Below, one piece after another: positions 27,873 to 58,385 of a DNA stretch of 64,000 nucleotides. The translations under genes and the position numbers were made by a program. Origin of the DNA: Hyalella azteca (taxonomy: Eukaryota; Arthropoda; Malacostraca; Amphipoda; Hyalellidae); the NCBI RefSeq assembly GCF_000764305.2, contig NW_025931313.1, positions 1-64,000 of the forward strand. Reading direction: 5' to 3'. Positions within the stretch are counted from its first letter, which is position 1. Each line of letters opens with the position of its first letter. The notes beneath the pieces were generated by a model that was given only the letters and a program-made list of their open reading frames with translations, did not search any database and had not been told where the DNA came from.

Positions 27873-28371
27873 AGCGTAAACGTGTCGAATAAAATATTTG
27901 ACGTTTGCGAGTTAAAACTCGTTGAATAAAGTATTTGACGTTTGCGAGTTAAAACGTGTTGAATAAAATATTTGACGTTTGCGAGTTAAAACGTGTCGAA
28001 TAAATTATTTGACGTTTGCGAGTTAAAACGTGTTGAATAAAATATTTGAAGTTTGCGAGTTTAAACGTGTCGAATAAAATATTTGACGTTTGCGAGTTAA
28101 ATCGTGTTGAATAAAATATTTGACGTTTGCGAGTTAAAACGTGTCGAATAAAATATTTGACGTTTGCGAGTTAAAACGTGTCGAATAAAATATTTGATGT
28201 TTGCGAGTTAAAACGTGTCATATAAAATATTTGACGTTTGCAAGTTAAAACGTGTCGCATAAAATATTTGACGTTTGCGAGTTAAAACGTATCGAATAAA
28301 ATACTTAATGTTTGGGAGTTAAAAAGTGGTGAACAAAATATTTAATATTTGCGAGCTCACACGTGTTGAAT
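27873..28371 (-). repeat. 37-bp minisatellite (about 13 copies) that begins inside the last PKC codons
   Basis: The plus-strand unit joins gaataaaatatttgacgttt and gcgagttaaaacgtgtc. The unit nearest the gene (28334-28371) overlaps the end of the coding sequence: the codons for F-I-Q-H-V and the stop are one copy of the unit's 'tcgacacgttttaactcgc' segment in minus orientation. The rest forms the 3' UTR or downstream flank. Confidence 0.9.
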
Positions 28372-28509
28372 AAACTCAGGATTGAGGTAGGAGAATCCAG
28401 TGAACTCGGTCTGGTCGAGGTTCATGAGGAAGAGCTTGTCGGTGGGGGTGAGCTCGGTGCGCTCCGACGTGAACTGCTTGTCGAAGTTGCTTACGTCCTT
28501 GCGGTGCCG
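28357..28509 (-). CDS. PKC: conventional protein kinase C, distal terminal exon (canonical V5 tail)
   Basis: Last 50 codons plus TGA of one PKC isoform. The acceptor (minus ttccccgacag) at 28510-28511 opens phase 0 with RHRKDVSNFDKQF and can join the phase-0 donor after FKPKI at 49011. The tail has the AGC-kinase turn motif (ELTPTDK, Thr-Pro) and the hydrophobic motif FTGFSY with its phospho-acceptor Ser. These sites control maturation and stability in conventional PKCs. It ends NPEFIQHV, whose C-terminal Val could form a PDZ-binding end (inference). The intron to the previous constitutive exon is about 20.5 kb and contains the alternative terminal exon at 35637. A 37-bp minisatellite starts at its last codons. 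Confidence 0.93.
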   Translation of the reverse strand, partial: RHRKDVSNFDKQFTSERTELTPTDKLFLMNLDQTEFTGFSYLNPEFIQHV

Positions 28510-28529
28510 CTGTCGGGGAAATAATACAA

Positions 28530-28640
28530 ATAATGATAATAATAACAATAATAAAAATATACTTAAAATATTAAAGATAATAATAGTGATATTGATGTGT
28601 CAGAACCAACGTTATCATAATAATTACAATAATTACCAGA
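28530..28640 (+). repeat. AAT-rich simple repeat in PKC intron
   Basis: Imperfect aataataat run with interruptions directly upstream (transcript sense) of the distal terminal exon's acceptor. Confidence 0.6.
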
Positions 28641-28699
28641 ACTAACGTCAATGAGGTGACATAAGCAATATGTTCACAACCGGTTATTAGGCTGCGATT

Positions 28700-31460
28700 C
28701 CTACGATTATGTTATTACCTTTGGTGAGATGCTGTGTTTAACCGCGTACTTACGAAGAGGAGTTCGGTAAAGATTTTTTACGATCGGGATTAGCTGTTAT
28801 GCTCAATAATAATATAATAATAATGCACAATCCACATGCACAACAATAAACAAAAGCAGAGCCAGAAATGAAGAAATGATAACATAACAATGTTCAACTA
28901 GATATACATTAAAGCCATTAATATATTCAGCCATTAAGAGAATTTATTTTAATACAATTTCAAAGTTCAGGTGCCTTACCTGAAGTGTATTTGTCCAAGG
29001 ATCATGTATCTCCAGAACAATGCAAGCCATGCTAATGAGGTGACCGAGCGAATACAGAGGTGATAATTCCTTTAATGCAAGAAGGTTTACCAAAGTTATG
29101 TACGAAATAATCGTTGGAAGATCGTAACGTTATCAATATATCACTCAATAGCCTACATTGTTTTAAAAAATAAATAGGTGACCACCAACAAGCGCTACAA
29201 GGTTCAATTTTTTAATAAATAATAAAAGAAAATAAAATTTAAATAAGCAAAGTGAACACTTTTTCAGAATCGCGCTCCCGACTTGACCTACGCTGGCGCT
29301 ACGAGTCCAGTGTCATCAATGTACAGAAGCACCGAGACTGCCATCATTTACGTCTCTAACATATACGTGCGAGATGTGTTCATTTTACACTCCTGTACTT
29401 ATGACACGCACCGATTTGATTTTATACTCCTGCTTTTACTATATGCACCAGTGTAAATTTTACACTATTGCCCTTACTATACGCTTGTCACTCAGAACTC
29501 TTACGACCATCGTGTAAAAAAGAGGGAAATGAAAGAATACCTTAGGTTTAATTTTTAGAGGGAAAATAGTTATATTTATAGGACACCGTGCACAGCAGTT
29601 GCAATATTTTTGTTTTAATTAACTCCCTGGGTGTCCGGAAGTGAGTTCATTGCGCGGTATCAACCGTCTCCTAACTTAAAACCTACAAAGCATTTGTTGA
29701 TTTTGAAGAACTGAACTATAAGTGAGCAAACTAGAGTAATAACCTCGCTACCGCGAGCCATGTTCTTGACACCTGCTTTTCGGTAACATATTAGAACAAA
29801 GGACGCGTCTTCACAGTTGATGGTAAGTAAATTTAAAATATGGTAAGTATTTAACAGTGAGATAAAATTTTTCAGCACGAAGGACATCAAACACAACAAA
29901 TTCAAAACATAAATCCTAACCAAATTTTTTTCCAATTCGATACAATTGAACAAAAAGCTTGATTTGCTACCGTAATTAGTGAGAAATGTAACATTAATGG
30001 ATACGTTAGCACAAGGCAACATCTCATATTCAGTAATTAAAGAAGGCAATAAAATAAACCCCATCCCAAAATTTCCGTCAACAGCAAACAACTTCACGGA
30101 GCGCTTCTATACGAACATAAAAATAGACACCATGTAAAAATACACGTTATTTTACAGCGTAGATAAATCCAGAGAAATGTTAAAATCCATAAAACATTTA
30201 GGATTTCAATAAGACCAATTGAAATTTCCAAGTGCATCAGACAGTTAAATGGAATTAAACACGATCAACGGACTCCGCTCGATTTACTGAAGTAGTAAAG
30301 GTGAGACTAAACCTATATAATGTTGGTATAAGTATATTCAACGACTCTACGTGACATAAGCTACACGAGTAACTTTCTTAGGCTACACTAAATAGACTAT
30401 GAAGGCAGGGTAAGATAGTGCATCAAGTTAAATATGTTTATAGTTCAGAATACCAGCTCCACGGTGTAACTTGAGTCTCATTAGCAAGCAAACTTCCCCT
30501 ATAACGTGGTTAATGTGCGTAATTTTAAGAGAAATTAGAATATTCACAAATAAAATCTTGCTGAATGTGTATCTTTTCAGTAGTTACAACTGAATGCGTA
30601 TCTTTACAACACAACTTGTTTTGAACACAGATTTTCGCAAAAGTATTTTGAGAGAGTATTTCAAGAAGAAAATTTCGCCGAAAGCAGACCGTTGAAAACA
30701 TGTTTCAAACGCGCAGTTTCACAAAAAAATTGTACCCAACAGGTATCTCTACGGAAAAATCTTTCTGACCTTTCATTTTCGAAAGCAAACAATGCAACAC
30801 AACAACAGCCCAGCACGCGATTCAAATAAAATTTATATAGCAGTAGCAGAAGCTCCAGTCGCCCATAAAATTATTGGTTTTGTTAACAGATCATTAGGCT
30901 CGAAACGATAGAGCAGTTCCGAGGAAAATTGAACGCGTCATAGAAAGACAATAAATCAATTTTAGTTTGAACCTTTTTAAATGGATAACAAATCGTCCTG
31001 TATAATTTAATATTAAATCAAGTATCCGTTCACAATTAGTTAACTGAATAATTAAACCAAATATTCGAAATGTTATGTAGCTAACAAGTTAGAAACATCT
31101 ACTGTTTTTAACGCCTGCTACAGAAATGTGAACTTACAAACTGTAGCGAATGTCATGTCGGCAACCTGAAATATTTCTGTTTCTCACTAACGCAGCCCAC
31201 GAATGATACGGTGAACAGGTGAGTATTACAAGGTTATAGTTAAGTGCAAGTAATTAGCAAGGCAATAGAGCTCCACCACATAAACTATTAGTATAACAAT
31301 ACTAAGAAATCTTCTAAAGAAATGGATCAAAGAACGTCTGATGCTAACTATTCTAGATAAGGAAGAAAGGACTGCAACTCAGCCATTCGGATGATGGTAG
31401 CAAGTCTACGAATATTGAACTATGGAGCATCTGACTAAGATAAAATGTCATGGTCATTAC
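28700..31460. other. PKC intron, no supported gene
   Basis: AT-rich. A 145-codon minus ORF at 29660-30097 has no domain and looks like chance; no array or element ends recognised. Confidence 0.45.
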
Positions 31461-31467
31461 ATTCCCT

Positions 31468-31565
31468 TGAATACGATGATCGTCAGGTTTATCTGATAAC
31501 CGTGAATACGTTTATCTGATAACCGATGGATCGTCAGGTTTATCTGATAACCGTGAATACGATAA
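31468..31565 (+). repeat. short tandem repeat, two to three copies
   Basis: Copies of gatcgtcaggtttatctgat then aaccgtgaatacg, with one partial copy between. Confidence 0.7.
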
Positions 31566-31897
31566 AGTTCGATTCAAACCTTAGAACCACGATTGGTGGA
31601 TGTATGTACGACATCGCGAGTCTCGAACCTCCTGGTTATCTAATAGAAAGTTATAATATCGAAAGTGAATAATATCTAATAGAAAGTTATACGGATAAGT
31701 TCATATTATAATATATTTATTCTATCTCAAACATCAATGTTGGACTAATAAGACGTATTTTAATCTTGGAACATCAAACTGACAACTAATGCTACTTGAG
31801 AAGTGATGCATAAGAAGGCAAAGGAATGCATATAAGATATTAAGTAGGACTTCAGCTCATCACAAGACGTCACATCACAACCACGCTCGTCTGCGCA

Positions 31898-32128
31898 GCA
31901 GAACAATAACTGCAGAGCAATAACTGCAGAGCAATAACTGCAGAGCAATAACTGCAGAGCAATAACTGCAGAGCAATAACTGCAGAGCAATAACTGCAGA
32001 ACAATAACTGCAGAACATTAACTGCAAAGCAATAACTTCGGAGCAATAACTGCAGAACAATAACTTCGGAGCAATAACTGCAGAACAATAACTGCGGAAC
32101 AGTAACTGCAGAACAATAACTGCAGAAA
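31898..32128 (+). repeat. 15-bp minisatellite, about 15 copies
   Basis: Unit gagcaataactgcag (includes a PstI site, CTGCAG), diverging at the right end. It yields spurious minus-strand ORFs rich in Ser-Tyr-Cys and Leu. Confidence 0.93.
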
Positions 32129-32169
32129 ATGTCAAACAATAAGCGGCCTTCATCGCATAGAACTGCCAT

Positions 32170-32375
32170 TTGCACATGCAGATACAGTACGTGCAGCCTA
32201 TATGTAGGTACAGATTCGCCATGTGTACCATATTTTCAGGTGCAAATACGGTATGTGTTCAGTATTAGCACATACAGATACGCCATGTGTACCGTATTTG
32301 CAGGTACAGACACAGTATATGCACAATATATGCAGGTACAGACGCAGTATTTGCAGGTACAGACGCAGTAATCGC
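32170..32375 (+). repeat. degenerate ~20-24-bp tandem repeat
   Basis: Variants of gcaggtacagacgcagtatt and 'cgccatgtgtaccgtattt' alternate; it directly follows the 15-bp array. Confidence 0.75.
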
Positions 32376-32509
32376 ACAAAATTTGCAGAAGCAGATACGG
32401 GCGCACTAGGATTATCAAAAGGACAATACGTTCAATATGTTCACCTCAAAAAATATCAAACAAGTTGACTTTTTGTCGACCCTAATACTAGTATCCATGG
32501 AGCACTGAG

Positions 32510-32655
32510 AAAAATGTGCGGGTAATATTGTCCAGAGACAGAGAACGGAAGCAGCACTGGTACGCCCATTTGCAGGGTCAAACTGGGTCTGGATGACCCA
32601 CTGCCTCGCCATTAGAAAAAGTCTCACACATTTCTCATGTGTGATGTAAGAAAGG
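32510..32655 (+). repeat. dispersed GGTCAGGATGACCC repeat, copy d
   Basis: Contains 'aactgggtctggatgaccca', 'gaaaaagtctcacacatttc' and a gtgtgatg end in the same order as the 26329 copy. Confidence 0.55.
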
Positions 32656-32699
32656 CGTGTACAATGGTAAGCTTCATGCCCAGTATTGTCAAAAACGGT

Positions 32700-33900
32700 C
32701 AAGTCTTAGCACACATGACAAGGAATTAAAGAGACAATACAAAGATCATTCAAACAATCCTCGTATTTTGTCCTAAATGTTACTTTTGTTCAACTGATAA
32801 ATTATCTTAAGCAAGAAACGCTAAATATTTTACGAAAAATTATAAGTCACGTCAATCGCACGCAAGCCTGTTCACTGTTCAGGGTCGCTTGATGACCTGT
32901 TCGGAGTTAATAAATATAAAGGATCAAAAGTACGGTAGCTACAGAATATTGTATACTAGGTGTAGAGGTGCATGCATAGATCTAAACCTGGTGATTAAAA
33001 TACTACACTACAATAATATTCTTATGGCTAATCACCTACAATTTGCGTGGCTATAATTGTCCGCGGCTGGTGAACTCAAAATTGTATTCCAATCACAAGG
33101 ACAAAATTTCGTCATCCAAAGCCACTGTCGTCCAAAAAATTTTTAGATGGACTTTAAAATTCGAAATATTAACACTATTTTTCCTTCGCCATTGACGTTA
33201 AATCTGTTTAGTGTGCTTAAAATCGCGATGATAAACACGCGCTTTTGCGTCCAAATATTAATTCTTGAGTATAATTCAGAACGCAAGTTAAATTTTCGTA
33301 GTTATGCAGATTTACGCGCCTTCCGTACGATATTCCGACGTAGATTGTAAAATCCGCGCACAGGCAAAGAAAACTTGAGTACTCATCTTGTAGATAGTGA
33401 CGAAAAAATGGTTTTCCGTTGTATTTTTTATGAAAATATTTTTTCAGCTATCTTCAAAGTATTGAAGATCATAATTCTGTATGAAGATTCAACAATTAGT
33501 TCACCAAATCCTCAGACCTGAAAAAAAAAACAGATTATTTGGCACGTGTTTTCTACTTCTGCGCTTTTGGAATATTCTAGTCACAACTAAAAGGAAGAGT
33601 TAAGCACACAAAAATCTATTGCTCGACGTCAAATGAAAACCCTAGGATAAATTGGATCATGAGTTGAATTTTTTCAGCAATAACGCGATACCCTAGTGTT
33701 CGATACCTCAAAAAGCGATACTCCGGTAAGTGATGCACCAGTCCGCGATAGTCCCGATACCTTAATTAGTGCGCTATACCCCAGAGGCAGATAGCCCCGG
33801 TTAGTGATACCTCAGGACAAGATACCCGGTGCAGGGTATTTCTCGTCTTTCTCGAAAGTGGGCATAAATAACCCTTTTTGTGCCGATATGAAACTAAGAT
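32700..33900. other. PKC intron, no supported gene
   Basis: Nothing coding recognised; 33680-33830 has a loose series of 'gataccc/gcgatac' words that may be a decayed tandem repeat. Confidence 0.4.
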
Positions 33901-33904
33901 GGCC

Positions 33905-34270
33905 TAGTGCACCTAGCCCAGACTCTCCCTAGTTCACCTAGTAAATACTCTTCCTATAATGCATCTAGCCCAGACTCTCCCTAGTTCACCTAGTAAATAC
34001 TCTTCCCATAATGCACCTAGCCCAGACTCTCCCTAGTTCACCTAGTAAATACTCTTCCTATAATGCATATAGCCCAGACTCTCCCTAGTTCACCTAGTAA
34101 ATACTTTTCCTATTGAACCTAGTCCAACCTCTCCCTAGTGCACCTAGTAAAAAGTCTTCCTAATGCACCTAGTCCAGACTATCAGTGGACCAAGTCCAAC
34201 CTCTCCCTTAGTGCACCTACTAGAGGCTCCACCTAATGCACCTACAAAAGACTTCACCAAGTGCACATAG
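33905..34270 (+). repeat. ~52-bp minisatellite, four good and several decayed copies
   Basis: The unit joins 'cacctagcccagactctccc' and 'tagttcacctagtaaatact'; copies decay toward the right end. Confidence 0.88.
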
Positions 34271-34299
34271 ACCGGACCAAAGCTCACCCTGGAAACTCC

Positions 34300-35400
34300 A
34301 AGTCTGTGAACGCAACCGAAGTTTCGATTTTAAATGAGGCATATTGTAACAATGAACATTAGCGGAAGACTGGAAGCATAGACGGAAGTTATAAGTCAGT
34401 AACTAATTTTTGGCAACAATGAGAGGAAGCTGAGAGAAAATCTTATATCGAACATGATGGCACGTTCCACATCTCTTTAAATATCAAACCTTCAAAGATT
34501 GTACACATCTTACGACATGTAGCGCCACAGGTAACATGTTATGCAGCATAAAGAACACCATGATGCTTTTGTCATGAATATGAGGAGCAGATTTACTGCA
34601 TCGTCATTATAAATCTTGAATTCACAGGTAAGATTTACTTACTCGCTATCCATTAATTTGATGTACTACAAAGATAGATTTACGTACGTACTTGTTAGAA
34701 CTTTTGATGAATTCACGGACCAACTTACTTATTTACTCGATCTTTATCTAATGTTGTTCATTTTACGAAAAGATTCATCTAAGTGAAAAGTGTTCAATCT
34801 AGCAAGAAAGTACTGAAACATTATTTCCTTAAAAATTGGTAAAAATGATTTCTATCCCTCATCAGTGGCAATAAACCATTCGTCGTTGCAATAAAATACA
34901 ATGAATAAGTAGCATTTTTGAGTTCCGACATCTCCCGAAGAATACTCTAATATCTCTTTTATAAAATGGAACATGATAAAACATATTATAGTAACCATCT
35001 CCTATTTACCTGCAGTTAAGATACCATGCAATAGGTCGCACGCACACAACATAAAAACTGGACACAAGCTTTTGGATCATTTCTGGCAGAGCCGCTCAAG
35101 CTCTCTCCCTTTTTTAGCGTTAAAAAATCTCTATATAGGGTGTAGATGGTAGAGCCCAAGTAGCTTCTCTTTAATTTAACTGTATAGAAGTACTTTAAAT
35201 ACTTAGATTGCGGATTAATCATAATCCCCCCGATGGTTTTGAAGTAACGTATCGCTCAATGATTTTAGATAGCAGCGCCCCCGAAGCTTCCCTTCAGTTA
35301 TAGAGAAACTTTTTACTCTAAAGGTTTGGTTGGAGTTTCCCCTGAAGCTCTACTGGGACCCCACGCCTCCACAAGATTTCATTGAAACCTCCAGAAGCTC
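34300..35400. other. PKC intron, no supported gene
   Basis: No domain-bearing ORF, RNA gene or array seen. Confidence 0.4.
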
Positions 35401-35419
35401 CCTCTGGATCCCATGTCCC

Positions 35420-35700
35420 CCGTTCCCGCGTAGTGATATTCACTGAAAGGGTTTAATTTGAACCCCCTCCTCCTGAAGCTCCCCCTGTACCCACAGTAAT
35501 TTTTCACACAAAGGGTTTATTTGAACCCCCTCCTGAATTTCCCCCTTTAACCCACAGTAATTTTTCACACGAATGGTTTAATTTGAACCCCCCTGAAACT
35601 ACCCCAGTACCCACAGTAATTTTTCACACGAATGGTTTAATTTGAACCCCCCCTGATGCTCCCCCTTGACCCCCCACAGTAGTGAGGGTTGACATAATAG
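35420..35700 (-). repeat. ~58-60-bp minisatellite starting in the alternative PKC stop exon
   Basis: Units contain cccacagtaatttttcacac, 'gaatggtttaatttgaaccc' and a C-rich 'cctgatgctccccc' part. The unit nearest the exon encodes the final CGGSRGSIRGGSN residues and the TAA stop of the alternative PKC tail. Confidence 0.85.
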
Positions 35701-35816
35701 AACCCTGCGAAGGCCTCAGGGTCGATGTATTGCATGATCTTGGTGTCGCAGGGCGAGGGCTCCAGAGGGCACTGCCGGAACACTGGGTCAAAGTTCTCGC
35801 CCAACCGAGGGTTGCT
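35637..35816 (-). CDS. PKC: conventional protein kinase C, proximal alternative terminal exon (variant V5 tail)
   Basis: A second last exon, homologous to the distal one. The acceptor (minus cgtcgacgacag) at 35817-35818 opens phase 0 with SNPRLGENFDPVFRQ, so it can join FKPKI at 49011. The V5 architecture is kept (NFD, then EPSP, IDPEAF, then FAGFYYVNP). The turn motif is Ser-Pro instead of Thr-Pro, and the Ser of the hydrophobic motif is Tyr (FAGFYY against FTGFSY). The last 13 residues, Gly/Ser/Arg-rich, come from the first unit of the adjoining minisatellite. Mutually exclusive V5 exons are known for vertebrate PRKCB (beta-I/beta-II), so an equivalent choice is likely here. Low-level decay cannot be excluded. 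Confidence 0.82.
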   Translation of the reverse strand, partial: SNPRLGENFDPVFRQCPLEPSPCDTKIMQYIDPEAFAGFYYVNPHYCGGSRGSIRGGSN

Positions 35817-35829
35817 CTGTCGTCGACGA

Positions 35830-39020: not shown

Positions 39021-39030
39021 TCCACCAAAG

Positions 39031-44220: not shown

Positions 44221-44229
44221 CCAGAGGAT

Positions 44230-45678: not shown

Positions 45679-45699
45679 GTTGGAACATATTAAAATGAA

Positions 45700-47040: not shown

Positions 47041-47049
47041 TAAATATTC

Positions 47050-47867: not shown

Positions 47868-48206
47868 CTGAAAAATACCGATATTATCCAGTCATTAGTT
47901 ATCCCTAAATACCGACATTATTCAGTCAATAGTTATCCCGAAATACTGACATTATTCAGTCATTAGTTATCCCGAAATACCGTTATTATCCAGTCATTAG
48001 TTATCCCGAAATACCGATATTATCCAGTCATTAGTTATCCCGAAATACCGATATTATCCAGTCATTAGTTATCCCGAAATACCGATATTATCCAGTCATT
48101 AGTAATCCCGAAATACCGATATTATTCAGTCATTAGTTATCCCGAAATACCGATATAATTCATTCTTTAGTTATCCCGAAATACCGATATAATTCATTCT
48201 TTAGTC
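47868..48206 (+). repeat. 34-bp minisatellite, about ten copies
   Basis: The unit joins ttatcccgaaataccgatat and tatccagtcattag; the last units change to aattcattctttag. Confidence 0.93.
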
Positions 48207-48454
48207 ATCCCGAAACGCAAAAAAGGTTTAGTCCCAACTTTGTCCCAAATACCACCAAGCTTTGGTTGTTAGTTATGCAGAAAACCCCCCAAAATTTAGT
48301 TACAAGTACTTCTGAAACACTAACATTACTTCGTACAGCTTAACAACCCGCAGCAAACGTATGGTAATCTAAACGTAAAGTGATGATGTCAAGTTTTGGG
48401 CAGACGAGCTTGAGAGAGAAACTTAGAGAACCAGAACCTTACGCTAGAATTTAC

Positions 48455-48650
48455 GGTGCTTGCACACGAGACAACTAGTGGCGGCCAGTGTCACCAGCAC
48501 TAATAATAGTGCTATTGGCTACGTGTATAGGCGCTACTGGCCACGGAATGACCAGTGGTCGTTTACACAAGGCCAGCAGCACGGTAAACTGTGGCGGTTA
48601 GTATACAAGAGTTAAACTGGCCGCCACTTCTGGCCACGTGTACAAGCATC
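48455..48650. mobile_element. small inverted-end element (Harbinger-like MITE, tentative)
   Basis: The left end is ggtgcttgcacacgagacaa; the right end reverse-complements to gatgcttgtacacgtggcca. Both ends contain 'agtggcggccagt'. The ends resemble GTGTACAAGCACC at 828-840. No ORF; target duplication not established. Confidence 0.5.
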
Positions 48651-48949
48651 ATAACACCTTAACACCCTAACCCGCGAGAAAGTCAGATCCTAACTCTGGA
48701 AGTTACACTCTAACTTGTGAGACAGTCAGATCCTACACTTAGAAAATAAGTGGGTCAGAATAACCCACTTAGCTTGAGGCAACGGCCTTTCCCGAGATAA
48801 ATGCATCAGATTAGCTCACTATCAGTTTTTTTAGTCATAATGACCGAGCCGTGACACACTCACGTGAGTCACATCATACTCGCACACAGCCGTGACTCCC
48901 ATAAGTAGATCACACTGACCCACTTATTTATCTTGACACAAAGGATGGT

Positions 48950-49010
48950 CCAGGAATAAGTATAGCACTAGTAGTATAGTACAGCAGTAGTAGTATAGTA
49001 TAGCACTCAC
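48950..49010 (-). repeat. short repeat directly after the PKC exon donor
   Basis: Plus strand 'agtagtatagtatagcact' words repeat three to four times; the first minus-strand unit is the donor itself (gtgagtgctatactata). Confidence 0.6.
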
Positions 49011-49151
49011 GATTTTGGGCTTGAAGGGCGGCTGGACTTCTCTGTTCTCGAGGCGCCCCCAGTCGATGCGGCGGTAGAACAAGTGCGTCCTGATGTCTTC
49101 CTCCCCCGTGGGCCCGCAGCCCAGCCTCTTAGCGGGCTGCTTCGTCAGCAG
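49011..49151 (-). CDS. PKC: conventional PKC exon: kinase subdomain XI and start of C-tail
   Basis: 47 codons, [20 protein letters not shown] through to PPFKPKI. It contains the RLGCG motif that ends the kinase domain and the FFRRIDW segment typical of conventional and novel PKCs. Acceptor ctcccgtcag (49152-49153) and donor ATC|GTGAGT (49011/49010) are both strong and leave phase 0 at each end. The phase-0 donor is shared by both terminal exons (35816 and 28509), making this the branch point for alternative C-termini. Confidence 0.95.
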
Positions 49152-49359
49152 CTGACGGGAGGACAGTAATAAATTAATTCTAAAAATAAAACGGAATAAA
49201 TTAAAAAGAAATCATGAACAATAACTGATCATCGGTAGGAATTTTTTCGGTCCTCAGATTCAATGAAAAAATTTCGAACACTAAAAGTCTTTCTGACTTC
49301 CATGAAAAAATATCATAAATAATAAGAAGAATGCCAAAAATATCGCTAATAAACTCAAG

Positions 49360-49810
49360 CAGAGGTCTTTAGAATCTTTGCAGAGGTTCATTAGATTCCT
49401 TTTAGACGACCTTAGACTCCTTTCAGAAGGGCTTAGGGAAGGAGTCCTAATGTATAAAACGCCACCACCACCTCACGCTCTTGCAGAGGTCCTTGGAGAG
49501 GGACTTAGGATAAGAGTCCTATAATGTATGAAATACGATCAATGACTCACTCCCTAACAGAGGTCCTAAGACTTGGAGTAGGACTAGCAATTCATACAAC
49601 ACAGTGAGTTACTCACGGCCTTGCAGAGGTCCTTAGCCTCCTTGGATAGCGACTTGAGGTAGGAGACGCCATTTAACAAGGCAATATACTCACGCCCTTG
49701 CAGAGGTCCTTACTCTCCTTCGACAGGGACTTTGGGTAGGAGACGCAATGTAACAAGGCCTTCTACTCACGCCCTTGCAGAGGTCCTTAGAGCACTGGAT
49801 GATCTGGGAT
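49360..49810 (-). repeat. tandem array of PKC exon-plus-donor copies (~65 bp, five to six)
   Basis: Minus-strand copies of the exon segment ending in KDLCK and a following GTGAG donor recur at about 49.40, 49.48, 49.56, 49.64, 49.70 and 49.78 kb. Readings include DSYPKSLSKDLCKS, one with stops (SYSKS, stop, DLC), VSYLKSLSKEAKDLCKA and VSYPKSLSKESKDLCKG. Units are separated by about 20-30 intron-like bases. At least three keep open frames and canonical donors. Confidence 0.85.
49694..49744 (-). CDS. PKC: conventional PKC exon: kinase subdomain X (best of several tandem copies)
   Basis: The minus strand reads VSYPKSLSKESKDLCKG then GTGAGTAT. This matches the alpha-helical segment that follows the 'EHN' of PKC kinase domains (VSYPKS.SKEA..ICKG in the family). 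The phase-0 donor fits LLTK at 49151. Its 5' limit is uncertain: an AG lies 15 bases upstream (giving ALLHC before VSY), but the longer exon expected in the family, with the DWW and GxPPF motifs, is not seen. A sibling copy at 49630-49680 (VSYLKSLSKEAKDLCKA) is equally open, so which copy is used cannot be decided from sequence. Confidence 0.7.
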
Positions 49811-49814
49811 ACGG

Positions 49815-50860
49815 AAGGAGTACTAAGAGAATGGTTGTAGTGGGTAATGATCTGCTATATGTAGGGAGTGGTACAATGGTGTTAGGGAATTGAAACTACA
49901 GATTTCAAGAGAGTGTTTTCGGAAGTGTCTTTCATTGCAAGCCTTTGTTGGGGTCCACGTTAAAGTACTATAAGTACGGCTGGACGAACCTGGACAACCC
50001 CAGCAATGGTACCAAGATCAGGAATGGTAGTAGATGATATGCACCACGTACCAATTTGTGTACTACTACCAAGTCCATCAGTGGTACCGTAAGGTTCAGT
50101 ACATCTTATAGTCGATTCTGGTGTATCAAAGCAGCAGATTGTTTATTCCAAATAATGTAGCACCAATAATTATCTATTGAATGAAAACAACAATTTATTA
50201 AACCTTGTTCAATAAATCGTGTCCGAATGACCACTCCCACCGGCGGTTAAGACAAGAAAAAATTGCGTCACGATGTTGTGTATTGAGCGAAACAAACTGT
50301 CTTAAAATTTTTTCACGTCTATGAATGAGGAAAAACCAGAACGGAGGCTGTGGGCTTGTCAAGTAGAACGTTGATAAGTTCAACATTTTCCTGGGAGCAG
50401 TAAAGTGTATAAACCTTTGGTAACGCGTTGGTGTTGAATGAAGAATTAAGTTAGGAACTGGAGTATATTAGAGAAAAACTTCTGAGCGAAAGACATAAAC
50501 AAGTTGAGTTGAAGGCGAGTCGAAAAAATAATTTGAAATGTGAACGATGCATTAGTGAAAAATATAACTCAGGACTGACTGCAGTGAGTGTCAGAGAGAG
50601 AGCATTTTCTCATCGACAAAAACGTGAAGTTACGGACATACGGACGGACAGAAAGACGGACAGAAAGACGGACATGACGAGCACATAAGCGCCTTTTTTC
50701 CATAAATGAGAAAATGAGCTAAAAATGAATAATTTTATTTTTTTAAAGAAGAATAAGTAAATTCAGCAAATTTTCAATAAAACCGTAGAGGCCATTCATC
50801 AGTTCATCCAGCTAGTGTACGATATGTTTCCACTGAATATATGTTAAATGATTTTTTTTC
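49815..50860. other. PKC intron; expected kinase exon not found
   Basis: This stretch should hold the exon for subdomains VIII-IX (family motif SVDWWAFGVLLYEM). I read it on the minus strand and found no match. A small 'acggacagaaagacggacag' repeat is at 50636-50682. Confidence 0.5.
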
Positions 50861-50864
50861 ATTT

Positions 50865-51641
<777 letters not shown>

Positions 51642-51895
51642 TTAGAAATTAAAAAGTCAAAATAATCCGACAAAAAATCACCATATTGTTGAATACTTTC
51701 CCAGTTATGAAACGAAAAGTCGGTCAAAAATACGTGATAATGATAAGAAACGAATGAAGTAGAATTATCACGAAAGCTACGCACTAGGTAGGAATAACAT
51801 ATAAATAAGAAATATGCATGGAGCTTTTGAAAAGATTCAGCCAGTGACATACAAAGATACAGAAAGATCTGAACGACGTCGGTCAGGATTAGGCT

Positions 51896-52345
51896 ATGTT
51901 TTATGTTAAGTTAGGTTATGATATGATAGGTTATGTTATGATAGGTTATATTATGGTAGGCTATTTTATGATAGGTTATATTATGGTAGGCTATTTTATG
52001 ATAGGTTATATTATGATAGATTATGTTATGATAGGTTATGCTATGATAGGTTATGTTATGGTAGGCTATGTTATGATAGGTTATGCTATGATAGGTTATG
52101 TTATGATAGGTTATGTTTTGATAGGTTATGTGAGGATAAATTCTGTCCTGTTATATTATGCTAGGTTATGTTTCTAATGCTAGGTTATTTTATCTTAGAT
52201 TTTGCTAGGTTATGTTACGTTTGTTATGCTACAGGTAGGTTATGTCATGTAAGGTTCTGCTAGCAGCTAGTATATAGGCGAAGCTAGGTTAAGGATAAAT
52301 TGCGCTAAGTAATGCTAGGTTATGTTAGTTGAGTAGGTAGGTTAT
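51896..52345 (-). repeat. 15-bp minisatellite after PKC exon donor
   Basis: Plus-strand unit ataggttatgttatg, about 16 good copies at 51896-52150 and decayed words up to the donor. The minus-strand intron starts gtgagtgataacctacc, which resembles the repeat word. The 93-codon plus ORF here (MIGYVMIGY-type) is a product of the repeat. Confidence 0.9.
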
Positions 52346-52351
52346 CACTCA

Positions 52352-52447
<96 letters not shown>

Positions 52448-52739
52448 TCAACACAAGACGTCTTCAATTGTGTTGACACTATACGGGGTGGATGCTGTTG
52501 ACATCTTAGTACACAATAAACAAGTTGGTAAACATTTCAAAATGCTGAGTTAGCAACTAAATTACGAAATATATTGTTTCAAACTTAGGACTAATTAAGA
52601 AGTTGCTTTACGGTACTCATAATCCAGAACGCATATTATAACATTTATATTTTCTCTAGTGCTATACTGCTATTCGTACGACACTACCACAATTCTCGCG
52701 TTGTTGGAGCTGCTGTTGTTTTGGCTGCTCACTGGAGGA

Positions 52740-52895
52740 GTGCTTATACCGCGTGTCCTAATGCTATAGCTACGTACTAATGCTATAGCTACGGCGCTCA
52801 CCATGGTCTGCAAGTGTCCTAATGCTATAGCTACGTACTAATGCTATAGCTACGTACTAATGCTATACCTACGTACTAATGCTATAGCTACGGGC
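52740..52895 (-). repeat. ~18-19-bp repeat plus copied PKC exon end
   Basis: Plus strand 'tactaatgctatagctacg' units repeat about six times. At 52797-52820 a second copy of the exon end occurs: on the minus strand it reads cacttgcagaccatg|gtgagc, paralleling the true end tgcttccagaccatg|gtcagc at 52900. The copied donor is the better consensus. Confidence 0.82.
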
Positions 52896-52899
52896 TGAC

Positions 52900-53052
52900 C
52901 ATGGTCTGGAAGCAGGAGTGCAGCTGTACCAGGAAGGGAGGCTTGCCAGCGAGCGCGAGCACCCGCTTCTCTATCATGGTACACTCGACGTCATCGTCCT
53001 GGATGATGATGTCTTTCTTCAGGATCTTGATGGCGTACAGCTCGTCTGTGCC
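52900..53052 (-). CDS. PKC: conventional PKC exon: VAIK lysine and alpha-C helix
   Basis: 51 codons, [20 protein letters not shown] through to LHSCFQTM. It includes the ATP-anchoring Lys (YAIKILKK) and the alpha-C Glu ([16 protein letters not shown]). The acceptor aaatggcag (53053-53054) is good. The donor ATG|GTCAGC at 52900/52899 is weaker than its copy about 95 bp further on. Phase 0 at both ends agrees with neighbours at 54735 and 52444. Confidence 0.95.
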
Positions 53053-53099
53053 CTGCCATTTATATATAATTTACGTGAATTAAAGAAGATTAGCTGAGA

Positions 53100-53980
53100 T
53101 AGAAAGTAAATGAATAAATAAATAAATTAAGGGAAATTTTTTAGAATGGGTATAACAATTACGTAAATGAAAGATAATTTTCCAAACGAAAAAGACTTGA
53201 AATTTTAGAAGTTGAGAGAATTTCAAAGTTCGAGTTTTTCAAATCGTGATTTATTATAGAAAATATTTCCTCAAACGTCGAACTTCCATAACAAGCATTT
53301 CCATAAAATCCCATGCGTCCGCGGCCTGACATCAAAACATTCTCAAGAAGGCCAAGAATTTCAAAGAAGCGAAATTTCTGAGTACAAAATTGTAGTGAAA
53401 TCGCTATATATTCGTAATTCTTTCAAGTTTATTCATCTTAACCCGCCACATCTATCTTATTCACCGTAATTCACCACATACAGCTTAATCACCTTAACTC
53501 TCACAACTCTAATAAACCTTGGCAATTATTATTCCTATAATTATAATTTCAAAATTATTTTTCAAGTGTAATTCACTGAAATTATTACCGAAAAAATTCC
53601 CATATCACACTGACGCTCACAGCGTCCAATTATAACAACATTACCGGAGCTCAGCCTGCAGCTAATGTTCTTACGTCAGAAATTCACTAACAATTCGCTA
53701 AGTAATATTACTTAAAACATTTTCTTATTAAACTGCAGAATCTGGCAGCTAAATAATTATAAAGAATACAGAAAAAGCTGAAGTTTAGGCCTACGTTGCC
53801 TGCAGCGACAGCTTCTGTCGACCGCAGGCTGTTGGTGACAGCGGCTCACGTAGAGAAAAATATTCCTGATATAAATACCTGATATAGATAAATAGATGTA
53901 GTAAAAATATACCTCACATAGATACGTATAGACCTCAAAAAATATATAAACATGATTAAACTGTACATAACTGATTTAGG
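53100..53980. other. PKC intron, no supported gene
   Basis: AT-rich; loose 'tatacctgatatagata' words near 53865-53930. Confidence 0.4.
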
Positions 53981-53986
53981 TATATA

Positions 53987-54228
53987 CAGTGGGTGCAAAA
54001 AGCAAAAATTATCCGACACAAAGGAAAAACTTTGCGGAAAGGAAACATTAACTTTTACCAAATTGCAATTAATAAGTTAACATTTAATGATCTTGTTGTT
54101 GTTTTGCTATGATATTTGTATTTGCCATGCAAATTTAAATTAGAATTGCGTTTTTTATGTTATTTTGTTGAATAGGTCTTAATTAAATAAAGTTTGTCCT
54201 TTGTGTCGCATACTTTTCGCACCCATTG
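53987..54228. mobile_element. Tc1/mariner-type MITE (242 bp) with TA target sites
   Basis: TA flanks both ends (53985-53986 and 54229-54230). The left end is CAGTGGGTGCAAAAAGC; the right end reverse-complements to CAATGGGTGCGAAAAGTATG. Both continue with 'CGACACAAAGGAAAAACTTT' / 'CGACACAAAGGACAAACTTT', giving imperfect inverted repeats of about 50 bp. TA duplication and CAGTGGGTGC-type ends fit the Tc1/mariner superfamily. No ORF. Confidence 0.8.
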
Positions 54229-54454
54229 TACTATATATACCTGATTCAGATATATACCAGTCATATATATATATACCTGATGTATATAGATAGATCAGGG
54301 GTATATGAAAAAACATTTACCGGCGGCTAGCGCTTCAAGAACAAAGCGCAGTTAAGTTTATTGGAAGAAATCTTGAAGTTCATGTAGAATTTACTTGAAT
54401 AATAAAAGATTTACTAAGAAAAATACCAGCAGCATCTTATAGCGGCCTTTTTAA

Positions 54455-54760
54455 CGCACCTTTCTCTCAGCGAGCAGCACCTTATAGCAACCCTTTAACG
54501 CACCTTCCTCTCAGCGAGCAGCACCTTATAGCAACCCTTTAACGCCCCTTTCTCTCAGCGAGCAGCACCTTATAGCATCCCTTTAACGCCCCTTCCTCTC
54601 AGCGAGCAGCACCTTATAGCCTGTCTCTTATACACATCTAGATGTGTATAAGAGACAGGTNCAACACCTTATAGCTACCCTTTCACGCACCTTTCTCTAA
54701 GCGAGCAGCACCTTATAGCAACCCTTTAACGCACCTTTCTCTCAGCGAGCAGCACCTTGC
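54455..54760 (-). repeat. ~43-44-bp minisatellite made of PKC exon end plus donor
   Basis: About six to seven plus-strand units of 'cctttctctcagcgagcagc' plus 'accttatagcaaccctttaacgca'. On the minus strand each begins AAGGTGCTGCTCGCTGAGAG then AAAG|GTGCGT, which is the last codons (KVLLAERK) and donor of the exon at 54735-54890. The array is interrupted by an adapter sequence. Confidence 0.93.
54621..54661. other. Nextera mate-pair junction adapter retained in the assembly
   Basis: 38 bp at 54621-54658 are CTGTCTCTTATACACATCT joined to its reverse complement. This is the Tn5 mosaic-end junction made in Nextera mate-pair libraries. An undetermined base (n) follows at 54661. It is not biological sequence and marks an unreliable join within the repeat. 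Confidence 0.97.
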
Positions 54761-54890
54761 CAAAGGACCCCTTTCCAAGCACCATCAACATGTTGAAGTC
54801 GGTAGCGCGGATCACGTCTCGCTTGGACATGTTCGACGGCACGTCGTTGGGTACAGCAGGCGCCACGGGACGCTTGTTGATACTCAGCGT
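54735..54890 (-). CDS. PKC: conventional PKC exon: end of hinge and glycine-rich loop
   Basis: 52 codons from TLSINKRPVAPAVPNDV to KVLLAERK. The first half is variable hinge (V3); then DFNMLMVLGKGSFGKV is the start of the kinase domain with the ATP-binding GKGSFG loop. Acceptor cctcgcccag (54891-54892) and donor AAG|GTGCGT (54735/54734) are both phase 0. The exon end has been copied into the adjoining minisatellite, so tandem donors follow it. Confidence 0.95.
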
Positions 54891-54959
54891 CTGGGCGAGG
54901 TAACAAAGTTCATTATTGATATTTTTATTAAACAATATCAGTTAATAATGTCACTTTGA

Positions 54960-56040
54960 AGAAAGCAGTTAAATGGTGTGTGATAACAACACGCTTTCCC
55001 TCACCATTAACGGGCGTCAGAGTGTGATAACGAAAAGTTATTTTCTTTATATTTGTTATACATTATCAGTCTAGGTAATGCACTATAATAGTCGTTACTT
55101 TTACTAAAGAATATCAGTCGAGATAATGCATTATTGTGGCGTGTCATTACATAGCGCTTCCATCTTCAATAATAGGCGTCTGGTCGTGGTAAATAGCGTC
55201 TTAATTTCGTAACGCAAGGTTTACTTTTGTTGCCTTCATTATATAGGATCACTTTAGTTAAAAATATCAGTTTAAATATTGCAATTGAGTGGTGTGTGGT
55301 AAGACGCTTCCCTAAACCATTAATCGGTGTTTAGTAGTCGTAACAAAAGGTTCACTTTCGTGAGTTTTAGTGCAGAATATCAGTTTGAGTGATGCACTAT
55401 GATGGCTTCATCTCACAACGTTTTCCATCACTATATATCAACGGAAATAGTGTGGAAGCTTGAATACTTTGTAACCTGTACGATTAGAGATTACTATCTT
55501 CAAGTTCACGGGCAATCGGATTTTAAATGAGATTATCAGATTATCATAAGCTATCAATCATATCATAAGCTATCATTATAGATACCTATACGTATTATAA
55601 ATAACAATATGTTGAAGGAGTTGCGCAGGATTGTTTACTGACCAAATAATCTGCTTATGAAAAATATAATTCGGTGATGTTATTGAATTAAAAATATTGT
55701 CTCAACAGATTTTATTTTTCGAAATAACAAATACAACCATATTTTATCACAAATATTAAAAAGTTTATGCTATGGGGCATCGTTAGGGCATCAGATTCAG
55801 TATTTTATCAAATATTCATTAGGAAGCTTGGCATCACCGACAATAGTTCAAGTGAGGCATGCGAATTCATCATTTAAGTTGTCTTTGTTTTATTATTACA
55901 CACCTGGTAACATTACTATCATTTTTTCTCTGGTATCGTCGCAAGTGTGATGAACTCTGTGGTGACATCACAGCCATGCTGCCTATGAACCATACCACAC
56001 AACACTATCCGTTGTAATACATTGTATGTATTGTGCTTCA
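54960..56040. other. PKC intron, no supported gene
   Basis: Loose long-period similarity between 55010 and 55430 (recurring 'aatatcagttt..gataatgcac' and 'gtcgtaac' phrases about 100 bp apart) suggests an old, decayed tandem repeat. Confidence 0.4.
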
Positions 56041-56064
56041 ATATAACATGTGCTGGAATCCAAC

Positions 56065-56310
56065 TCATGCGATTCCCATGACGCGATTCCCATGATGCAA
56101 TTCCTAAACTGACGCCGCGATTCCTATGCCTTGATTCTAAAACTTACACGATTCCTAAACTTATGAGATTCCTAAACTTACGCAATCCCTAAAGTTACTC
56201 GATTCCAAAACTGATACGATTCCTATGACGTGATTCCCATTCAGATGCAAATTTCTACACTGACACGATGCCAAAACTGATGCTATTCGTAAACTGACGC
56301 GTAAACAGAT
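56065..56310 (+). repeat. degenerate ~19-20-bp minisatellite, about 13 copies
   Basis: Units vary around gcgattcccatgac and acgattcctaaactta. Confidence 0.8.
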
Positions 56311-56499
56311 AGTAAAGTTCCGGAAAAAGGGATTAAAATTTAACATGGATCTTAAGAGTCAGGAAGCTGTAAAAAATTCATATAAAATAATACACATAAA
56401 AGGATGACACGAAAAAAGTTGAAGTTACCGCTCTGAAGTGTAGATATAATTTAAAGGCAGACATAAAGTTTACATTAAAGGCATCGAACAATAAAGATA

Positions 56500-56690
56500 A
56501 GTAGGAGTCAATTTAGCGAAGTAGAAGCCAATGGAGCAAAGTAAGAGTCGATTTGTTAGGTAGGAGTCGATATAGTTAATTAGGAGTCGATATAGTTAAG
56601 TAGGAGTAGATATAGTTAAGTAGGAGTAGATACAGTAAAGTAGGAGTATATTTAGTTAAGTAGGAGTAGATATAGCCTACACAGTGATAG
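56500..56690 (+). repeat. 20-bp minisatellite, about nine copies
   Basis: Unit taggagtcgatatagttaag with gtaga and gtata variants. Part of it lies in the segment repeated exactly at the window end. Confidence 0.88.
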
Positions 56691-56918
56691 ACACAACCGG
56701 CGCCTTAAAAATTACACGTTAAGAAATTACAATAAAAATAAAAACAAAAAGAAAATTTGGAGACAGTGAACATGAAAATGAACGTGAAAAAAGTATAAAG
56801 TGCAAGGGGGATAACCTATCTAGTCTCCGGAGAATGATCTAAGTGGTTCGTTGAAATATTATTAGTGCTATTATTATTATTATTATTAATATTATTATTA
56901 TTATTATTATTACTGAAA
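56560..56918 (+). repeat. 359-bp segment duplicated exactly at 63642-64000 (first copy)
   Basis: Every base I compared matches with a constant offset of 7082, including repeat variants and the (att)n tract; flanks left of 56560 differ. The duplicate runs to the end of the window, so its full length is unknown. Confidence 0.95.
56868..56914 (+). repeat. (ATT)n microsatellite
   Basis: attattatt run with one aat interruption. Confidence 0.9.
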
Positions 56919-56944
56919 TTAAGGGAAGGGGCAGTCTTGACGAA

Positions 56945-57068
56945 CTGAGGGACGAAGCATGCGTTGACATGAGACTGAGGGACGAGGTACGTGAGACTGA
57001 GGACGAGGTACGTGAGACTGAGGGACGAGGTACGTGAGACTGAGGGACGAGGTACGTGAGACTGAGGC
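56945..57068 (-). repeat. 22-bp minisatellite, about five copies
   Basis: Unit gactgagggacgaggtacgt plus ga on the plus strand. It lies about 65 bp past the microexon donor on the transcribed side. Confidence 0.88.
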
Positions 57069-57133
57069 TGGCGAGACAGAACTTGGTATCGCAACGTACA
57101 CGTATCCGTAAGTTTATATACACCGGCAGTTAC

Positions 57134-57160
57134 CTTCATTCTCTCTTCAGCTTCCGCCTC
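57134..57160 (-). CDS. PKC: conventional PKC microexon: acidic hinge segment (9 codons)
   Basis: The minus strand reads EAEAEERMK between an acceptor (tttctttgacaccaaaag, 57161-57162) and donor AAG|GTAACT (57134/57133). It is phase 0 on both sides, matching the donor at 58257 and acceptor at 54890. It would extend the flexible V3 hinge between C2 and kinase domains, the calpain-sensitive region of conventional PKCs. Being 27 nt and symmetric, it could be skipped without a frameshift. Assigned by splice sites and position only, since the hinge is not conserved. Confidence 0.65.
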
Positions 57161-57219
57161 CTTTTGGTGTCAAAGAAAGCAAAAATTTACTCAACAACTT
57201 GAAGAAAATGCGAGCAGAA

Positions 57220-57355
57220 TTTACACTCAGAGAAATGAGCAGACTTTGTCCAAATAGCGACGCACTTTTTGCTTTTGTGTGGATCATCCTGACCCAGTTT
57301 GGCTTGTCAGAAGAGCGTATCAGAGCTACGTGCAGGGAGTGTGTCACTATTTGGG
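57220..57355 (-). repeat. dispersed GGTCAGGATGACCC repeat, copy c (minus orientation)
   Basis: The minus strand has aactgggtcaggatgatcca, 'aaaagtgcgtcgctatttgg' and 'acaaagtctgctcatttctc'. The frame reads NWVRMIHTKAKSASLFGQS, close to the 26329 copy. Confidence 0.65.
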
Positions 57356-57369
57356 CAATATGACTCAAT

Positions 57370-58135
57370 TTTTATGAATTGAGAGGAAATAAAATAGTAG
57401 TGTAGGAAAAATAATTCAGGAGAAGGAATTTCTGATAAAGTTATAATAGAGACGAAGGGAAGGAAGCATGACGATGAGGAGAGCAAGGAGAAGGTAATGG
57501 AGTTCATCCATTTTAATGTCAGAAAAAGAGGCTAAACAAACCATTAAAAAATAAAAAATAAATCTTGCTGGTCGTCGTTTACTAGTAAAGTTTTATTTTC
57601 TTAGTCGCTTTACTGAAAAAACAGAAGCTGAACAAATGAATGCATGGATGTCAACTGCGAATTGCGCTTCTAAATGAGGTAAGATAGTGACTTAAGAAAT
57701 CGTGTTTTTACGGCTACAATAACGGAATATTCGCGAGAGATACGAACTATTGCAACAAGCAAGAAAATAGTACAAAAGAAGCTACAAATGCGTACAGCAT
57801 GTCGCCAAATGATCAACCTAGTTACCGCACAATATTATTTCAACACAGGACGTCAAATAGCAAGGTGAAAGTATATAATTTACTCAAAGGTTATTGAAGA
57901 CATCAAAAAATATGTAAGATACAGCCGATTGAAGTTGATTTTACACTCTGTAAACCAATACATGACTCAGGCTGAGAAATTTCTGAAAGTAGGTATTATA
58001 TAATTTAAAGGACTATTACGAAGACACCACTAAATTATGAACAAAGCCTCTTCTTGAACTCTCATAAGCTTTAATAACTGTGGGTAGGAATCACGAATAT
58101 TTCCCTGAGGATCTCACCGAAGCGAAACTACCCTT
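57370..58135. other. PKC intron, no supported gene
   Basis: No array, element or domain-bearing ORF seen. Confidence 0.4.
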
Positions 58136-58139
58136 ACTC

Positions 58140-58256
58140 AAGCCTATATAGTACCATGAGGGTAGAGAACCTGAATTAATTCAAGTTACCATGAGGTACA
58201 AGTACCTGAACTCAAGCTCAGTACCATGAGGGTTAAGTACCATGAAGGCTAAGTAC
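58140..58256 (-). repeat. repeat of PKC donor-like sequence after exon
   Basis: Plus-strand 'gtaccatgagggttaagtac' units recur about five times with drift. On the minus strand the intron begins AAG|GTACTTAGCCTTCATGGTAC and further GGTACTTA words follow, so the donor heads the repeat. Confidence 0.72.
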
Positions 58257-58385
58257 CTTGAACTTCTCCTTGAGTTTGGCGATGTCGGTGCCCTCAGGTG
58301 GTACCATGACGTTGTAGTACTCGCCCTCTTGGTCCGTGAGCAGCCTGTACCATCCGTCCACGGGGTTCTTGATGATCTCGCTCAC
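58257..58385 (-). CDS. PKC: conventional PKC exon: end of C2 domain
   Basis: 43 codons, VSEIIKNPVDGWYRLLTDQE through to IAKLKEKFK. It carries the GWYRLL and GEYYNVMVPP segments of the last C2 strands in conventional PKCs. Acceptor (gaatggtag, 58386-58387) and donor AAG|GTACTT (58257/58256) are phase 0 at both ends. The SFG|VSE junction with the preceding exon reproduces the family sequence exactly. Confidence 0.95.

What the first reader, a model, noticed from the sequence alone, without database searches (positions are those of the whole stretch)
28334..58385. Minisatellites seeded from exon edges throughout one PKC gene
Seen: after most exons in the kinase half, on the transcribed side, a different tandem array begins, and its unit contains the exon's own end. 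Clear cases are the last codons and stop (28357, 37 bp), the alternative stop (35637, ~58 bp), KDLCK plus donor (49.4-49.8 kb), GTPDYIAP plus donor (50.9-51.4 kb), FQTM plus donor (52.8 kb) and KVLLAERK plus donor (54.5-54.76 kb). Weaker cases are at 49010, 52352 and 58256. The units have unrelated sequences and lengths, so one transposon family does not explain them. Inference: a repeated process duplicates short segments at exon-intron borders, possibly slippage or repair starting at the GC-richer exon edges. It leaves rows of extra splice donors. I know of no described system with this pattern.
Basis: partly seen in the sequence, partly recalled or inferred. Interest (0 to 1): 0.93.

Follow-up and report, generated by a model that had tools for sequence, protein, structure and literature searches.

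The report
Exon-edge minisatellites in an amphipod gene
Several exons of a protein kinase C gene in the amphipod Hyalella azteca end inside rows of short DNA repeats that copy the exon's own end; the same kind of thing, already described in amphioxus as 'mirages', turns up at both ends of exons in other sampled genes of this repeat-rich genome about as often as chance would place it, so no special exon-edge process is needed.

Summary
The arrays are in the assembly. In the conventional PKC gene (minus strand) an array touches or lies within 20 bp of 7 of 11 exon 3' ends and 1 of 11 5' ends. At four 3' ends a 30-base probe across the edge has a strong copy downstream, at no 5' end; a fifth appears when one gap is allowed.
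A process targeted at exon 3' ends is not supported. In other kinase genes of the same genome (Hyalella azteca) edge copies occur at 7 of 81 donor and 8 of 76 acceptor edges; non-exon positions give 335 of 4542 and 301 of 4517. About 11% of the sampled DNA is minisatellite. PKC is a real but post hoc outlier (rotation P 0.003, uncorrected).
The pattern is described: amphioxus 'mirages' (PMC3087553, PMC3902484; passages).
Best reading: random short tandem duplications, tolerated at exon edges because the outermost splice site stays in use (inferred; no RNA data).
The assembly is faulty here: adaptor sequence inside one array, a 98-100% copied block, one missing kinase exon.

The parts
28357..28511 (-). 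last PKC exon (RHRKDVSNFDK...NPEFIQHV stop)
   Evidence: tblastn to Panulirus PKC P0001, 92%
27878..28374 (-). 37-bp minisatellite, 13.4 copies, starting inside the last codons and stop
   Evidence: TRF; 13 edge copies listed
35640..35814 (-). alternative last PKC exon (NPRLGENFDP...)
   Evidence: tblastn to Armadillidium P0038, 61%
35439..35666 (-). ~60-bp minisatellite, 3.7 copies, spanning the alternative stop
   Evidence: TRF; 3 edge copies
49011..49152 (-). PKC exon [11 protein letters not shown]...FKPKI
   Evidence: tblastn 80%
48959..49007 (-). ~19-bp array beginning 3 bases inside the intron, no exon sequence in the unit
   Evidence: TRF; weak hits to another locus
49430..49795 (-). 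copies of SYPKSLSKEAKDLCKG plus donor (77-bp unit); source exon not found in the assembly
   Evidence: TRF 49610-49790; pattern search finds 4 places here and 1 single-mismatch place elsewhere in the genome; tblastn
51420..51621 (-). PKC exon FYAAEIAIG...GTPDYIAPE
   Evidence: tblastn 89-93%
51143..51443 (-). ~129-bp unit, 2.3 copies, spanning the GTPDYIAPE donor
   Evidence: TRF; 24/30 edge copy
52900..53052 (-). PKC exon GTDELYAIK...CFQTM
   Evidence: tblastn 94%
52758..52892 (-). 19-bp array with one longer internal copy of CAGACCATG plus donor
   Evidence: TRF; gapped alignment
54735..54898 (-). PKC exon ...GKGSFGKVLLAERK
   Evidence: tblastn 78-84%
54428..54758 (-). 44-bp minisatellite spanning the VLLAERK donor; holds adaptor 54621-54658 and N 54661
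   Evidence: TRF; 5 edge copies; adaptor and N
58257..58387 (-). PKC C2-domain exon ending KLKEKFK
   Evidence: tblastn
58216..58262 (-). 16-bp array touching the last exon bases (weak case)
   Evidence: TRF 2.9 copies, 83%
52352..52444 (-). PKC exon DRLYFVMEY...EPVAV, no array within 20 bp of its 3' end

Best explanation
These are mirage-type minisatellites. Short segments (about 15-150 bp) are tandemly duplicated at essentially random places in a genome where about 11% of the sampled DNA is already minisatellite, and some duplications happen to include an exon edge (placement at chance level: shown by counts in a kinase sample). Copying ran from exon to intron (inferred from the exon part being conserved coding sequence). 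The exon itself still reads intact and the spare copies counted lie on the intron side (the search looked only there). They persist because splicing keeps using the outermost site and the first stop still ends the protein, so extra copies are near-neutral and decay (inferred; in amphioxus, splicing over such arrays is reported as normal). Further copies come from slippage or unequal exchange (inferred). PKC is a chance or locally array-rich run of such events.
For: Edge copies in other kinases match non-exon rates: 7 of 81 donors, 8 of 76 acceptors, against 335 of 4542 and 301 of 4517. TRF array within 20 bp on the intron side: 13 of 81 and 11 of 76, against 13.2% of 10982 points. TRF array spanning the edge: 5 of 63 and 7 of 60, against 11.3% of points. 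Arrays cover 11.2% of 251 kb, 0.02% after Markov shuffling. Clear donor arrays (L051, L064) and acceptor arrays (L063, L049, L050) in other genes. Decoy donors look unselected: GT intact in 23 of 27 copies of six true-donor arrays (my reading of the listing). Mirages in amphioxus lie at both boundaries and are reported not to disturb splicing (PMC3087553, PMC3902484; passages).
Against: PKC is an outlier: edge copies at 4 of 11 donors against 7 of 81 elsewhere (Fisher P 0.024); TRF arrays at 7 of 11 against 13 of 81 (P 0.0016); all edges 8 of 22 against 24 of 157 (P 0.032). Its arrays are one-sided: TRF 7 of 11 donor-side against 1 of 11 acceptor-side, P 0.024; edge copies 4 of 11 against 0 of 11, P 0.09. 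Combined edges in other kinases are slightly above the non-exon rate (15 of 157, 9.6%, against about 7%), neither side significant. AG in acceptor copies is kept slightly better than neighbouring columns (0.96 against 0.86). Only kinase exons were sampled. No RNA evidence was available.
Confidence: 0.77

Rival explanations
1. A process targeted at exon 3' ends (slippage or repair at GC-rich exon edges, or linked to transcription or splicing) creates the arrays throughout the genome.
For: PKC: 7 of 11 3' ends within 20 bp of an array, 1 of 11 5' ends; rotation P 0.003.
Against: Other kinases: 7 of 81 donors and 8 of 76 acceptors, both at the non-exon level. Array coverage does not peak at the donor: 0.116 in the first 25 bp, 0.11-0.17 further in.
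Confidence: 0.07
2. A PKC-specific local hotspot: this gene or chromosome region makes or keeps edge arrays faster than others, in the direction of transcription.
For: PKC differs from the other kinases (Fisher P 0.0016 by TRF, 0.024 by edge copies); array coverage in the gene span is 16.5%.
Against: The gene was chosen because it looked striking; the P values carry no correction for that. Other loci also cluster: L031 and L033 each hold two edge copies and L019 is 35% array.
Confidence: 0.1
3. Assembly artefact: gap filling from short and mate-pair reads invented or multiplied the arrays.
For: Tn5 mosaic-end pair and N inside the array at 54621-54661; four more pairs in L073, 0.3-0.65 kb beyond the window; 56560-57067 recurs at 98-100% identity at 63642-64150, and the only two full-length 359-base matches listed are on this contig; kinase exon missing between two arrays. 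L068, one of the donor cases elsewhere, has an N about 100 bp past its donor.
Against: The PKC edge arrays have diverged units (77-89% matches by TRF); the window's only N and only adaptor pair lie in one of them; edge arrays recur in independent loci. Artefact may explain copy numbers and the lost exon, not the arrays as such.
Confidence: 0.04
4. The donor rows are functional, for example regulating PKC splicing or isoform choice.
For: Two alternative last exons exist, each ending in an array; a minisatellite is linked to alternative splicing in C. elegans (PMC4039745, abstract and outline seen).
Against: Units are unrelated between exons, decoy GT pairs are lost in several copies (3 of 5 intact at VLLAERK), and similar arrays occur at chance rates in other kinases.
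Confidence: 0.02

Closest known systems
'Mirages' of amphioxus (Adh3, globin BflGb6 and BflGb9, troponin C, PGBD5)
   Same: Minisatellite-like tandem copies spanning exon-intron boundaries; unit lengths from about 10 to 160 bp; donor and acceptor sides (PMC3087553, PMC3902484, passages).
   Different: Here an amphipod crustacean; seen in many loci and compared with a non-exon background rate; no transcript or allele data here, whereas the amphioxus passages report RT-PCR and haplotype length variation.
Intron gain or new introns from tandem duplications and arrays (Rogers model; Zhuo 2007 human arrays; Drosophila novel introns; human internal tandem repeats)
   Same: Tandem copies carrying splice signals (PMC2812944, PMC2891723, passages; Rogers and Zhuo 2007 seen only as cited references, content recalled).
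   Different: No evidence here that any copy has become a new intron or exon.
Ordinary genomic minisatellites (tandem-repeat-rich amphipod genomes)
   Same: Trinorchestia longiramus is given 6.18% tandem repeats (PMC7062882, passages); H. azteca sample 11.2% by TRF, period 9 or more.
   Different: Only in that a fraction of arrays includes coding edges; the two percentages come from different procedures.

Membership tests
Amphioxus-type mirages (tandem duplications of exon-intron boundaries) | Tandem units that contain both exon sequence and the adjoining splice site | tested here: met
   Edge copies with AG/GT; gapped case
Amphioxus-type mirages (tandem duplications of exon-intron boundaries) | Occur at both 5' and 3' exon boundaries | tested here: met
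   7 of 81 donor and 8 of 76 acceptor edges in other kinases; in PKC itself donors and stops only
Amphioxus-type mirages (tandem duplications of exon-intron boundaries) | Do not disturb normal splicing | not testable with these tools
   No RNA data held
Amphioxus-type mirages (tandem duplications of exon-intron boundaries) | Length instability between haplotypes or cells | not testable with these tools
   One assembly only, with gap-filling artefacts
Process targeted at exon 3' ends | Arrays enriched at donors over acceptors and non-exon positions | tested here: not met
   sample limited to kinase genes; a two-fold excess is not excluded
Single transposon or dispersed minisatellite family | Same unit at many places | tested here: not met
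   Eight edge arrays blasted against 347 kb held: no dispersed family (of the VLLAERK array only 54428-54620 was used); a genome-wide answer came only for the KDLCKG pattern; pattern searches for two other edge units did not complete

The most novel reading that the evidence does not exclude
In this amphipod genome roughly one exon edge in ten sits inside a self-derived minisatellite, a large standing stock of decoy splice sites and raw material for new introns; and in genes such as PKC a transcription-oriented process may add further arrays preferentially at exon 3' ends.
Probability: 0.08. Interest if true: 0.7.

Novelty: new member of a known kind. Interest (0 to 1): 0.38.

Why it matters
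The reports of mirages that I found concern amphioxus. In Hyalella azteca they appear at both exon boundaries of sampled kinase genes at about the rate expected from a minisatellite load of about 11%. That suggests exon edges are hardly shielded from tandem duplication and that splicing tolerates rows of near-identical sites. This gives a quantitative null model for claims of special duplication at exon edges, and a natural system for asking how the spliceosome picks the authentic copy and how often a decoy becomes a new intron.

Tried and rejected
Targeted exon-end process: rejected on the kinase sample. Dispersed transposon family: not found for the PKC edge units in held sequence, though other arrays in the window are dispersed or copied (13291 and 16772; 56560 and 63642). 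Microhomology at young two-copy duplications (53 cases): inconclusive, because several cases are visibly pieces of longer, uneven arrays; not used. Selection on decoy splice sites: no clear signal (GT columns 0.81 against 0.84 for the others over 43 copies, stop-codon arrays included; AG columns 0.96 against 0.86 over 28 copies). Missing kinase exon: sought with P0038 in the own genome; no listed match above 67% identity covers residues 372-414 (which scores only its best candidates). Papers not held: 10.1093/nar/gkf385, PMC1783408, PMC2791625; one paper search was malformed. Passages of PMC3152781 (Daphnia tandem repeats) and PMC5111886 (Parhyale genome) were read and not used. Sample filters: 78 kinase hits gave 63 donor and 60 acceptor edges; edges at the ends of the Pfam profile or without a splice-like signal were dropped. 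A further 22 tblastn clusters gave 18 donor and 16 acceptor edges. The 78 hits in 59 loci come from the 138 matches, roughly in E-value order; full-length single-exon hits and some partial hits were left out, the latter for the letter limit. The first 20 loci were chosen before any repeat analysis; the later 39 after the result on the first 20 was known, but without having seen their own repeats.
Full report
WHAT IT IS. The window is contig C255 of a 519-Mb assembly. A protein from another contig of the same assembly is 100% identical over 695 aa to fused kinase of Hyalella azteca, and the contig lengths agree (1,768,362), so the organism is the amphipod H. azteca. The gene is a conventional protein kinase C on the minus strand. 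tblastn with the Panulirus and Armadillidium proteins places eleven exons from 62.4 to 28.4 kb, including two alternative last exons.

THE OBSERVATION. Tandem Repeats Finder gives 79 rows in 64 kb, about 13-14% of the window against 0.03% in Markov-shuffled sequence. A 30-base probe across each exon edge (15 exon, 15 flank) was compared without gaps with 700 bp of flank on the intron side. Four of 11 PKC 3' ends have a copy of at least 24/30 (54735, 51420, 35640, 28357); none of 11 5' ends does. FQTM at 52900 has a copy when one gap is allowed. With TRF, an array lies within 20 bp of 7 of 11 3' ends and 1 of 11 5' ends; rotating the exon set round the window gives 1.7 and P 0.003 for the 3' ends. 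That P value is uncorrected for the gene having been picked because it looked striking. The outermost C1/C2 edges (62422, 62294, 61644, 61492) were taken from tblastn ends, not from checked splice sites.

At 49011 the array begins 3 bases inside the intron. At 52352 no array lies within 20 bp. At 58257 only a weak 16-bp array touches the exon. The KDLCKG copies at 49.4-49.8 kb have no source exon: the stretch between GTPDYIAPE and SYPKS (P0038 residues 372-414) was not found in the window, and in the genome search no listed match above 67% identity covers it. I take this as an assembly loss between two arrays, since the stretch is part of the conserved kinase core (inference); a true deletion is not excluded.

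ASSEMBLY. A Tn5 mosaic-end pair (recalled as the Nextera mate-pair junction) and an N lie inside the VLLAERK array. Four more such pairs lie within about 320 bp, starting 0.3 kb past the window. The block 56560-57067 recurs at 98-100% at 63642-64150, and the only two full-length 359-base matches listed in the genome search are on this contig. Copy numbers and spacing are therefore not to be trusted, but diverged units (77-89% matches in the PKC edge arrays) and edge arrays in independent loci are not explained by this.

THE GENOME TEST. From the 138 kinase matches, roughly in E-value order, I fetched 59 loci holding 78 of them; a letter limit stopped further fetching, and no locus was chosen by its repeats. 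The 78 hits gave 63 donor and 60 acceptor edges with a domain-internal end and a splice-like signal; edge copies of at least 24/30 occur at 4 of 63 and 7 of 60. Another 22 tblastn clusters in the same loci gave 3 of 18 and 1 of 16; some of these edges are less certain. Together: donors 7 of 81, acceptors 8 of 76. Positions away from the known exons in the same loci: 335 of 4542 and 301 of 4517. Fisher P is 0.67 for donors, 0.17 for acceptors and 0.79 donor versus acceptor. TRF arrays within 20 bp: 13 of 81 and 11 of 76, against 13.2% of 10982 points. TRF arrays spanning the edge: 5 of 63 and 7 of 60, against 11.3% of points. The control points include unannotated exons and intergenic DNA, which makes the control a little rough. 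Coverage does not peak at the donor. So neither a donor bias nor a significant edge enrichment is seen outside PKC. The 95% interval for donors (3.5-17%) excludes rates like the 36% in PKC but not a two-fold excess. Against this reading, PKC differs from the other kinases (edge copies P 0.024, TRF P 0.0016, all 22 edges P 0.032) and is one-sided by TRF (P 0.024; by edge copies P 0.09).

EXAMPLES ELSEWHERE. Donor arrays: L051 (32-bp unit, 9 copies listed), L064 (34-bp unit, 8 copies), L031, L068 (an N lies about 100 bp past this donor). Acceptor arrays: L063 (CAG plus ICDFG, 4 copies, three of them 30/30), L049, L050, L033, L031, L032. Only the intron side was searched, so 'outermost copy is the exon' follows from the design. 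GT is intact in 23 of 27 copies of six true-donor arrays and AG in 26 of 28 acceptor copies (my reading). The GT columns are about as well kept as the others (0.81 against 0.84, stop-codon arrays included); the AG columns are somewhat better kept (0.96 against 0.86). I see no clear selection on donor decoys.

HOW IT WORKS. Shown in the sample: chance-level placement, and both boundaries. Strongly inferred: exon-to-intron direction, because the exon part is conserved kinase sequence. Inferred: birth by slippage or repair-type short tandem duplication, growth by slippage or unequal exchange, and tolerance because splicing keeps the outermost site and translation stops at the first stop codon. 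A microhomology test to separate birth mechanisms was inconclusive.

COMPARISON. [quoted passage not shown] they report that RT-PCR suggests regular splicing and that haplotypes differ in copy number. Passages of PMC3902484 add PGBD5 and troponin C and say that the Adh and troponin C mirages do not generate aberrant mRNAs. The original Adh3 paper was not held. Passages of PMC2812944 and PMC2891723 tie tandem repeats or duplications to new introns. PMC7062882 passages give 6.18% tandem repeats in the amphipod Trinorchestia. Among the titles and abstract beginnings listed (capped lists) I saw no report of this in a crustacean; the library holds only openly licensed papers, and the H. azteca genome paper was not read.

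VERDICT. A real, locally striking, but statistically ordinary feature of a minisatellite-rich genome, of a kind already described in amphioxus. Its value lies in extending mirages to an arthropod with a background rate attached.

Noticed in passing
window 54621-54661; L022, L023, L062, L067, L073: Tn5 mosaic-end inverted pair (mate-pair junction adaptor) plus an N inside a minisatellite: gap-filling artefact. Further pairs in L022, L023 and four in L073; single ends in L062 and L067.
   Followed up: partly
window 56560-57067 and 63642-64000, continuing in L073: 98-100% identical block 7 kb apart on the same contig; the only two full-length 359-base matches listed in the genome. Likely a local assembly duplication or a very recent one.
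   Followed up: partly
window between 49.8 and 51.1 kb: A conserved PKC kinase-domain stretch (P0038 residues 372-414) is missing from the contig; no listed match above 67% identity covers it in the genome.
   Followed up: partly
window 28357-28511 and 35640-35814: Two alternative PKC last exons, one like the Panulirus isoform and one like the Armadillidium isoform; both end inside arrays at the stop codon.
   Followed up: partly
window 13291-13403 and 16772-16828: The same 30-bp minisatellite unit in opposite orientation 3.4 kb apart, a dispersed repeat.
   Followed up: partly
window 3083-3617: 87-bp coding-like repeat resembling C2H2 zinc fingers (read by eye from the TRF unit).
   Followed up: no
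L031 and L033: Two kinase loci that each carry two edge-spanning arrays, hinting that array-rich neighbourhoods cluster.
   Followed up: partly
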